27,352 nucleotides of DNA, from positions 1-27,352 of the IMG/VR virus record IMGVR_UViG_3300021139_000114; one strand, written 5' to 3'. The translations under genes were made by a program, and so were the position numbers. The DNA is from a virus. The notes beneath the pieces are model-generated. The model made no database searches, was not told where the DNA came from, and was given only the letters and a program-made list of their open reading frames with translations. Numbering within the stretch: the first letter of the stretch is position 1; the number at the start of each line of letters is the position of its first letter. Shown here piece after piece: positions 30 to 1,628 of this stretch.

Positions 30-737
30 TTAGATAATAATCCAACGAGCACCATTGCCCAAAGACACGTTCGCACCATTAGAAATCTGCAATGGACCAA
101 CCGATAGTGCAGAGTAACCAGCAGGTATGGCATAACTTGATTGTACGTTCTGGCTGTTCAACAATAGACCATTTGATGCCACGATTTCTGGACCAGACAA
201 GGCACCAGAGAAAGCAAACGTACTGAGTGTGGTCGTACCAGTTACTGTCAAGTTACCGGCTGTAATATTACCTGGTACTGTAACTGTTGTTGATGTGACT
301 AGAGAAGAAGTAATATTTGTTGCGGTAATATTACTACTGTATAAGTTACTTGTTGCCACATTGGTTGCTGTGGTAGTACCAGTAAATATCAGGTTAGATT
401 GTAACTTAGTAGATGATATAGAACTGTCCGCAATCGCACCTTGAGTCACCGTATTGGCGCCAGGTGCAATGCCTGTCTGTACGAACTGTCTGTATACAAC
501 CGAGATATTATTGGCACCAATAGATGGTGTACCAATAAACTGTAGGTTGTTTAGGTTATACACATAGTATGCAACACCAGGATCCTGTATAACGTTGTTG
601 ACTACCACCTGTATGTCGGAGTTGGCTGTTACGTTACGAGATAGGAAAAATAAAGACGTTACACCATCGCCAGAGAAATGGTCGTATGCTGTTGATGAAA
701 CCCCTAAAGCGTCCGGGCGTTGGCCTATGTAAGAAAT
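30..737 (-). CDS. Short fibre-like protein, probable ATT start
   Basis: The first ordinary start in frame is GTG at 608, giving 192 residues. The frame continues upstream without a stop to 737, however, and those 43 codons encode a typical phage fibre N-terminus: ISYIGQRPDALGVSSTAYDH, then FSGDGVTSLFFLSRNVTAN, continuing into DIQVVVNNVIQDP. A stop TGA lies three codons upstream of the ATT. The sequence GAGGTG sits five bases before the ATT at 737-735, an ideal ribosome binding site. I therefore call a 235-residue protein starting at ATT. The middle is a Thr/Asn repeat shaft (TATNVATSNLYSSNITATN), and the C-terminus is ISNGANVSLGNGARW. It may be a short fibre or fibre connector. An undetected indel is the alternative. 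Confidence 0.75.
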   Translation of the reverse strand: MSYIGQRPDALGVSSTAYDHFSGDGVTSLFFLSRNVTANSDIQVVVNNVIQDPGVAYYVYNLNNLQFIGTPSIGANNISVVYRQFVQTGIAPGANTVTQGAIADSSISSTKLQSNLIFTGTTTATNVATSNLYSSNITATNITSSLVTSTTVTVPGNITAGNLTVTGTTTLSTFAFSGALSGPEIVASNGLLLNSQNVQSSYAIPAGYSALSVGPLQISNGANVSLGNGARWIII

Positions 738-742
738 TTTAT

Positions 743-748
743 CACCTC
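743..748 (-). promoter_or_regulatory. Ribosome binding site that decides the ATT start
   Basis: GAGGTG on the minus strand, five bases before the ATT at 737-735. It lies just downstream of the previous gene's TAG stop. No such site is found before the GTG at 608. Confidence 0.55.
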
Positions 749-750
749 AC

Positions 751-1089
751 CTAGGATATTTGTAATATGGACGCAATCGCATCCGCTGAACCATTAACAG
801 AAGAAACTACCTGAATAGAATCATTAGCTTTGATAACCAATTTCTGGTCACCACCAACCACCACTAATGTACCACCAATCGGTACAGTTGCATTAGTAAC
901 AATGTTAGTTGCTACGTAGTTGTTTGCCGAGTCTAAGATATAGGCCGATACTTGAATAGTATTAGCTGTTGTTCTATTTGCTATAGAAAGACCAATAACC
1001 GTAGATTGGGTCGCATTTGGTCCTTGGTATACCGTTGTGTTTGCGGTACCAATACCTGGTTTTAGACTGTTTGTAAATACGTTTGGCAT
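751..1089 (-). CDS. Small beta-rich virion protein
   Basis: 112 residues, almost certainly an all-beta fold. TVIGLSIANRTTANTIQVSA (30-49) and VVVGGDQKLVIKANDSIQVV (75-94), followed by SADAIASILQIS, resemble a family of small phage tail or fibre-associated proteins with the pattern GDQKLVL...DSI.V.SS....D...S..EI. Function is not established to my knowledge; attachment or decoration of tail fibres is likely. The stop TAG at 751-753 is followed directly by the ribosome binding site region of the next gene. Confidence 0.72.
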   Translation of the reverse strand: MPNVFTNSLKPGIGTANTTVYQGPNATQSTVIGLSIANRTTANTIQVSAYILDSANNYVATNIVTNATVPIGGTLVVVGGDQKLVIKANDSIQVVSSVNGSADAIASILQIS

Positions 1090-1112: not shown

Positions 1113-1120
1113 TATTTATT
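1113..1120 (-). promoter_or_regulatory. Late-promoter-like AATAAATA before the 112-residue gene
   Basis: The minus strand reads AATAAATA, ending 23 bases before the next ATG and touching the cupin stop codon. A start about 6 bases downstream would give a leader with an AAGAAAAAG purine tract before the ATG. The layout fits a T4-like late promoter. Confidence 0.45.
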
Positions 1121-1628
1121 AGAATACTTTTTCTTTATCCCAAGGTCTATGGTACCTATTTCCTGTAAAGATATCAAATGCTGGTGCAGGAGGCATCAAC
1201 ATTTTACCGGTAGTTTTTCTGTATTCTTCTATGGTTATTGGTAAAGGAGTTGGTACTGGGAACATACTAGGGTCTATAATTTCTTCATCATTGTCCCTCA
1301 GCGCATGAATACAACAAACTTCTGTATTATCTTCTAAAGAAGTAATTTGGTGTACCTTACCTTTGGCAATAAAAATCATAGCCGGTGCTTTGAATTCTTT
1401 AGGCGGTGCCATCTCACGAGTTTCTTCATCATAGACTTGTACATTTACTGAACCTGAACCTACAAAACTAACATGGTCATAGATATGTGTATGGCCCAAT
1501 TCAATAATACCTTTCTTTTTAAAACTCATACGTCTAATATAAACATTTGAGCAACAAGATATTTGTACTTCTGGTCCTAAATCGGTTTGAGAAGCTTGTT
1601 TATTATAATATGTGGTTTCATTATTCAT
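1119..1628 (-). CDS. Cupin-domain protein
   Basis: 169 residues with a single cupin barrel. Motif 1 is IIELGHTHIYDHVSFVGSG with His46, His48 and Asp51 or His52 as probable metal ligands. Motif 2 is APAMIFIAKGKVHQI with His93 as the last ligand. The arrangement (HxH about 45 residues before a single His) is that of metal-binding cupins. The C-terminal tail (PMFPVPT-like, then FDIFTGNRYHRPW) is Pro-rich. There is no signal peptide. It lies in the fibre block, so it could modify fibres or host sugars, or be a structural barrel in the virion. No substrate can be named. No ribosome binding site is evident. Confidence 0.8.
   Translation of the reverse strand: MNNETTYYNKQASQTDLGPEVQISCCSNVYIRRMSFKKKGIIELGHTHIYDHVSFVGSGSVNVQVYDEETREMAPPKEFKAPAMIFIAKGKVHQITSLEDNTEVCCIHALRDNDEEIIDPSMFPVPTPLPITIEEYRKTTGKMLMPPAPAFDIFTGNRYHRPWDKEKVF

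What the first reader, a model, noticed from the sequence alone, without database searches (positions are those of the whole stretch)
30..750. Gene that seems to start at ATT, or has a frameshift at its 5' end
Strong fibre-type coding sequence extends 43 codons upstream of the first normal start (GTG 608) with no ATG, GTG or TTG in frame. GAGGTG sits at ideal distance from an ATT at 737. A GTG at 750 in another frame would join this frame if one A were added to the AAAA run at 737-740. So this is either natural ATT initiation (known for infC), a -1 slip at AAAA, or a homopolymer error.
Basis: partly seen in the sequence, partly recalled or inferred. Interest (0 to 1): 0.6.

Follow-up and report, generated by a model that had tools for sequence, protein, structure and literature searches.

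The report
Phage tail-fibre gene starting at ATT
An uncultured T4-like phage carries a tail-fibre gene whose start codon, always ATG or GTG in 57 related genes, is ATT here and sits behind an unusually strong ribosome-binding site, so the gene probably starts at this rare codon, although a sequencing error cannot be ruled out.

Summary
The minus-strand fibre ORF (stop at 30) is open 43 codons past the first canonical start (GTG 608), back to an ATT at 737-735, with GAGGTGAT three bases upstream. One detail is wrong: the GTG at 750 reads GTG-AGG-TGA and stops. The GTG that one extra A would bring into frame is at 745, inside the Shine-Dalgarno (SD) element.

Homologues settle where the protein begins. 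In 57 distinct IMG/VR loci, alignment starts at this codon, which is ATG (54) or GTG (3). Codons 2-43 are under purifying selection and form the first strands of a confidently predicted N-terminal fibre domain. A start at GTG 608 or a frameshift is therefore unlikely.

The ATT gene's SD (predicted -15.2 kcal/mol) is stronger than those of the 19 other genes in the window (best -8.0) and all 57 homologues (best -8.6). A strong SD with a weak start codon is the known design of S. aureus cvfC1 (AUU start, extended SD), and a sequencing error would not predict the coincidence. My best explanation is genuine, attenuated AUU initiation (about 0.62). The main rival is an ATG-to-ATT error or private mutation. 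Reads and near-identical genomes were unavailable, so this is not excluded.

The parts
30..737 (-). Fibre-type CDS read from the ATT (235 aa plus stop; first residue expected to be fMet, then SYIGQRPDA...)
   Evidence: Open frame; homologues aligned from residue 1
735..737 (-). ATT, proposed start codon
   Evidence: Aligns with ATG (54) or GTG (3) in 57 distinct homologous loci
741..748 (-). Extended Shine-Dalgarno element GAGGTGAT, 3-nt spacer AAA to the ATT
   Evidence: Predicted -15.2 kcal/mol; strongest of 20 genes in the window and stronger than at all 57 homologues
606..608 (-). GTG, first canonical start in frame (codon 44); rejected as the main start
   Evidence: Falls inside predicted strand 42-46; codons 2-43 are conserved
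743..745 (-).
   Evidence: Reads GTG ATA AAA TTT CTT ACA TAG
751..1089 (-). Upstream 112-aa gene; its stop TAG (753-751) is 13 nt before the ATT
   Evidence: 79-80% identical in L009-L011, 48% in L012; same gene order in L010-L012
438..737 (-). N-terminal fibre domain (residues 1-100), related to PHROG 18673 and the T7-type fibre N-terminus
   Evidence: Matches of relatives; residues ~21-80 predicted at pLDDT block means 93-97; Foldseek

Best explanation
The fibre protein is translated from the AUU at 737 by initiator fMet-tRNA. The 30S subunit is placed there by an unusually long SD pairing (GAGGUGAU, 3-nt spacer), and ribosomes finishing the upstream gene 13 nt away may help. The weak start codon lowers output (roughly tenfold for the measured S. 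aureus non-canonical starts), and the strong SD partly compensates. Shown: the position of the start, the SD and its rank, and the coding and conserved state of codons 2-43. Inferred: that ribosomes really start at AUU in this phage, that the ATT is the true genomic base, and any regulatory benefit.
For: Homologues at the same operon position start exactly at this codon: 16 ATG and 3 GTG of 19 in a scan whose patterns exclude the start codon, 54 and 3 of 57 overall. pN 0.28 against pS 0.77 in codons 2-43 compared with L010. SD -15.2 kcal/mol against a best of -8.0 at the window's 19 other genes and -8.6 at 57 homologues. The same leader GTGAGGTGATAAA is directly followed by ATG in an unrelated viral gene (L105). 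Precedents: S. aureus cvfC1, AUU with conserved extended SD (PMC13009471); E. coli infC and pcnB (PMC9410913); Yersinia RcsD-Hpt, AUU and RBS needed (PMC10191623). No other gene of the window shows a frameshift or premature stop.
Against: No homologue has ATT. The base rests on one metagenomic record; reads and near-identical genomes were not available. The host and its anti-SD sequence are unknown (a standard 16S end was assumed).
Confidence: 0.62

Rival explanations
1. The native codon is ATG (or GTG). The T is a consensus or assembly base error, or a private start-codon mutation that lowers or abolishes expression of a dispensable fibre in this one genome.
For: All 57 homologues have ATG or GTG; ATT differs from ATG by one base; ATT after a perfect SD seems very rare in viruses.
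Against: It does not predict that the affected gene has the strongest SD of the 77 compared. The record shows no other sign of errors, although substitutions are mostly invisible outside start and stop codons.
Confidence: 0.28
2. Translation starts at GTG 608 and the 43 upstream codons are no longer translated.
For: It is the first canonical start in frame.
Against: It would cut the N-terminal domain within predicted strand 42-46. Homologues are conserved through codons 2-43.
Confidence: 0.04
3. A ribosome starting at GTG 745 slips -1 on A-AAA (or the genome really has five A's), fusing VIK to the fibre frame.
For: GTG ATA AAA TTT is open up to the run, and a -1 shift there enters the fibre frame.
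Against: GTG 745 lies inside the SD and has no SD of its own. The A-site re-pairing after slippage (UUU anticodon partner on AUU) is poor. Homologues have no matching extra N-terminal residues.
Confidence: 0.04

Closest known systems
Staphylococcus aureus cvfC1 (AUU start with extended SD; PMC13009471)
   Same: AUU start; very strong SD whose pairing extends towards the start codon; a weak start guided by a strong SD
   Different: Cellular gene, conserved across staphylococci and mapped by ribosome profiling; here a single metagenomic phage record with no expression data and no conservation of ATT
Escherichia coli infC and pcnB (AUU starts)
   Same: AUU start codon that limits expression, sensitive to IF3 (from the literature)
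   Different: Feedback control of IF3 or control of plasmid copy number; no evidence of feedback here
Yersinia pestis RcsD-Hpt (AUU start; PMC10191623)
   Same: AUU start that needs its RBS
   Different: Internal start within a frameshifted gene; here the AUU is the main start of an intergenic-spaced ORF
Tail-fibre family of PHROG 18673 and the T7-type fibre N-terminal domain (PF03906)
   Same: The family N-terminus (M[SAP]YIGxxP..., F.GDG.T..F.L.R.V...DIQVVVNNV.Q.P) aligns from codon 1; Foldseek hits include T7 gp17 (7boz, probability 1.00)
   Different: The window protein misses the PHROG and Pfam thresholds itself; Foldseek E-values are weak (0.0035-0.05); the homologues have ATG or GTG starts

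Membership tests
Natural AUU-initiated gene | AUU occupies the translation start position | tested here: met
   57 homologues start at this codon
Natural AUU-initiated gene | SD at a suitable distance | tested here: met
   GAGGTGAT, 3 nt before ATT, -15.2 kcal/mol
Natural AUU-initiated gene | AUU conserved in independent genomes | tested here: inconclusive
   Relatives at 73% N-terminal identity and below have ATG or GTG; nearer ones are withheld or absent
Natural AUU-initiated gene | The base is supported by reads | not testable with these tools
   No reads available
Natural AUU-initiated gene | Initiation at AUU shown by ribosome mapping, reporter or N-terminal peptide | not testable with these tools
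   Experiment needed
IF3-type autoregulated AUU gene (infC) | The product is IF3 | tested here: not met
   The product is a fibre-type protein
PHROG 18673 / PF03906 fibre N-terminal domain | Profile match by the protein itself | tested here: not met
   0 families at E 0.001 for the window protein; 29 of 32 aligned members match PHROG 18673 and 10 of 32 match PF03906. Filed as a relative of those members, not as a profile member.
Programmed -1 frameshift gene | Zero-frame start and slippery heptamer in the correct phase with stimulator | tested here: not met
   GTG 745 frame reads A AAA TTT, which does not re-pair at the A site; the local hairpin is not clearly above shuffles

The most novel reading that the evidence does not exclude
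A T4-like phage sets the dose of an accessory tail fibre by pairing a deliberately weak AUU start with a near-perfect extended SD, making its synthesis sensitive to host IF3 and possibly to translation of the upstream gene.
Probability: 0.2. Interest if true: 0.6.

Novelty: new member of a known kind. Interest (0 to 1): 0.4.

Why it matters
AUU initiation is experimentally supported for only a handful of bacterial genes, and I found no phage structural gene described with it in the open papers searched. If real, it would be a phage example of the strong-SD/weak-start trade-off. In any case it shows that gene callers restricted to ATG, GTG and TTG would truncate this fibre by 43 residues and lose part of its N-terminal domain.

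Tried and rejected
Searching for close relatives by DNA (phages, distant mode: no match), by the SYIGQRPDA codons with any third base in the start codon (0 hits), through the 169-aa gene further upstream (no relatives) and in bacterial genomes (none). The genome search 'relatives' is not available for virus records. Readthrough or fusion with the upstream gene was rejected: that frame reads TAG GTG AGG TGA TAA. The hairpin over the SD was noted but does not exceed shuffles clearly (z -1.57). A survey of GGAGGTGATAAAAT sites for further ATT-start phage genes found none convincing; the non-ATG cases were mostly inside reading frames or had a start shifted by one or two bases. GAGGTGATNNNAT does not occur in the records of the four nearest relatives. 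No paper on phage genes with ATT starts was found.

Full report
WHAT IS THERE. The window is a complete 27,352-base IMG/VR virus record from the tail and baseplate region of a T4-like myovirus: one gene matches PHROG 230, baseplate tail tube cap, and another is a fibre with a Peptidase_S74 domain. Every gene I take as real runs on the minus strand. The fibre-type ORF that ends at 30 is open upstream of GTG 608 for 43 codons to ATT 737-735. An in-frame TGA at 749-747 closes the frame, with only GGT GAT AAA between it and the ATT. There is no ATG, GTG or TTG before codon 44. The GTG that one extra A would bring into frame is at 745, inside the SD-like element.

WHERE THE PROTEIN STARTS. Searching with the upstream 112-aa gene gave L010 and L011 (80% identity), L009 (79%) and L012 (48%). 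In L010, L011 and L012 the next gene is the fibre homologue, and it begins with ATG overlapping or abutting the upstream stop (ATGA or TAATG). L001 and the isolated Methylophilales phage Melnitz have homologues that also begin with ATG at this position. A scan with patterns that do not include the start codon returned 23 loci, all aligned from residue 1. The 19 distinct ones have 16 ATG and 3 GTG at codon 1. A second scan raised this to 57 distinct loci, 54 ATG and 3 GTG; one of its two patterns includes M, so its ATG share is biased. Several relatives share the layout stop, short spacer with GAGG or AAGGA, ATG (L038, L039, L045, L095). So ATT 737 occupies the start position.

CODONS 2-43 ARE PART OF THE PROTEIN. 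Against L010 they show pN 0.28 and pS 0.77, with 26 of 50 differences at third positions. The AlphaFold2 model is confident for residues ~21-80 (block means 93-97). Strands 11-23 and 29-31 lie wholly upstream of GTG 608, which falls within strand 42-46. The rest of the protein is modelled poorly. Relatives match PHROG 18673 'tail fiber protein' (29 of 32) and PF03906 Phage_T7_tail (10 of 32). Foldseek hits are mainly podophage fibre and tail proteins, including T7 gp17 (7boz), with weak E-values.

THE RIBOSOME-BINDING SITE. GAGGTGAT occurs once in the window and lies three bases before the ATT. Its predicted pairing with a standard 16S 3' end is -15.2 kcal/mol. The other 19 genes checked, all ATG, have -8.0 at best, and the 57 homologues have a median of -5.8 and a best of -8.6. 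The one gene without a canonical start thus has the strongest SD of 77 compared. If the T were a random error, the chance of it falling on the top-ranked site would be about 1 in 20 within the window, or about 1 in 58 among the homologues. An unrelated gene in another virus has the identical leader GTGAGGTGATAAA directly followed by ATG (L105), which shows that this leader places a start at that spacing.

HOW IT PROBABLY WORKS. The 30S subunit is recruited by the long SD pairing and uses AUU as a weak start. This matches S. aureus cvfC1, where an AUU start behind a conserved extended SD was seen by Ribo-Ret, and non-canonical starts gave about 10% of AUG expression in poor medium (PMC13009471). 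E. coli infC and pcnB are the classical AUU starts (PMC9410913), and an RBS-dependent AUU start was shown for Yersinia RcsD-Hpt (PMC10191623). IF3 discriminates against such codons (PMC2268962). The upstream stop is 13 nt away, so re-initiation may contribute. A hairpin over the SD is possible but not clearly above chance.

WHAT SPEAKS AGAINST. No homologue uses ATT. Collections withhold near-identical records, and no reads were available. An ATG-to-ATT base error or a private mutation therefore stays the main rival, at about 0.28. A start at GTG 608 and a frameshift from GTG 745 are unlikely, at about 0.04 each.

VERDICT. The codon is the start position (about 0.9). That it is a genuine, functioning AUU start is my best explanation at about 0.62. 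It would be a new member of a known kind: AUU initiation guided by an extended SD, here in a phage tail-fibre gene.

Noticed in passing
33-206 (minus strand): The C-terminal ~58 residues (LSGPEIVASNGLLLNSQ...GNGARWIII) recur at 33-47% identity at the C-terminus of fibres in otherwise different phages (MW202796, Methylophilales phage Venkman, Synechococcus phages S-N03 and S-H34), like a shared fibre tip module.
   Followed up: no
1119-1628 (minus strand): A 169-aa protein in the fibre module reads like a cupin (GHTHIYDHVSFVGSGSVNV...AKGKVHQI). No Pfam match and only weak PHROG matches, one of them 'short tail fiber protein'.
   Followed up: partly
L009:5337-6014: In L009 the conserved 112-aa gene (79% identical) is followed by an unrelated repetitive, glycine-rich fibre gene instead of this one, which points to modular swapping just downstream of that gene.
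   Followed up: no
724-754 (minus strand): A 10-pair hairpin (-8.6 kcal/mol) holds the upstream stop and part of the SD in one arm and leaves the AUU in the loop, as in translational coupling; 17 of 200 shuffles fold as well.
   Followed up: partly
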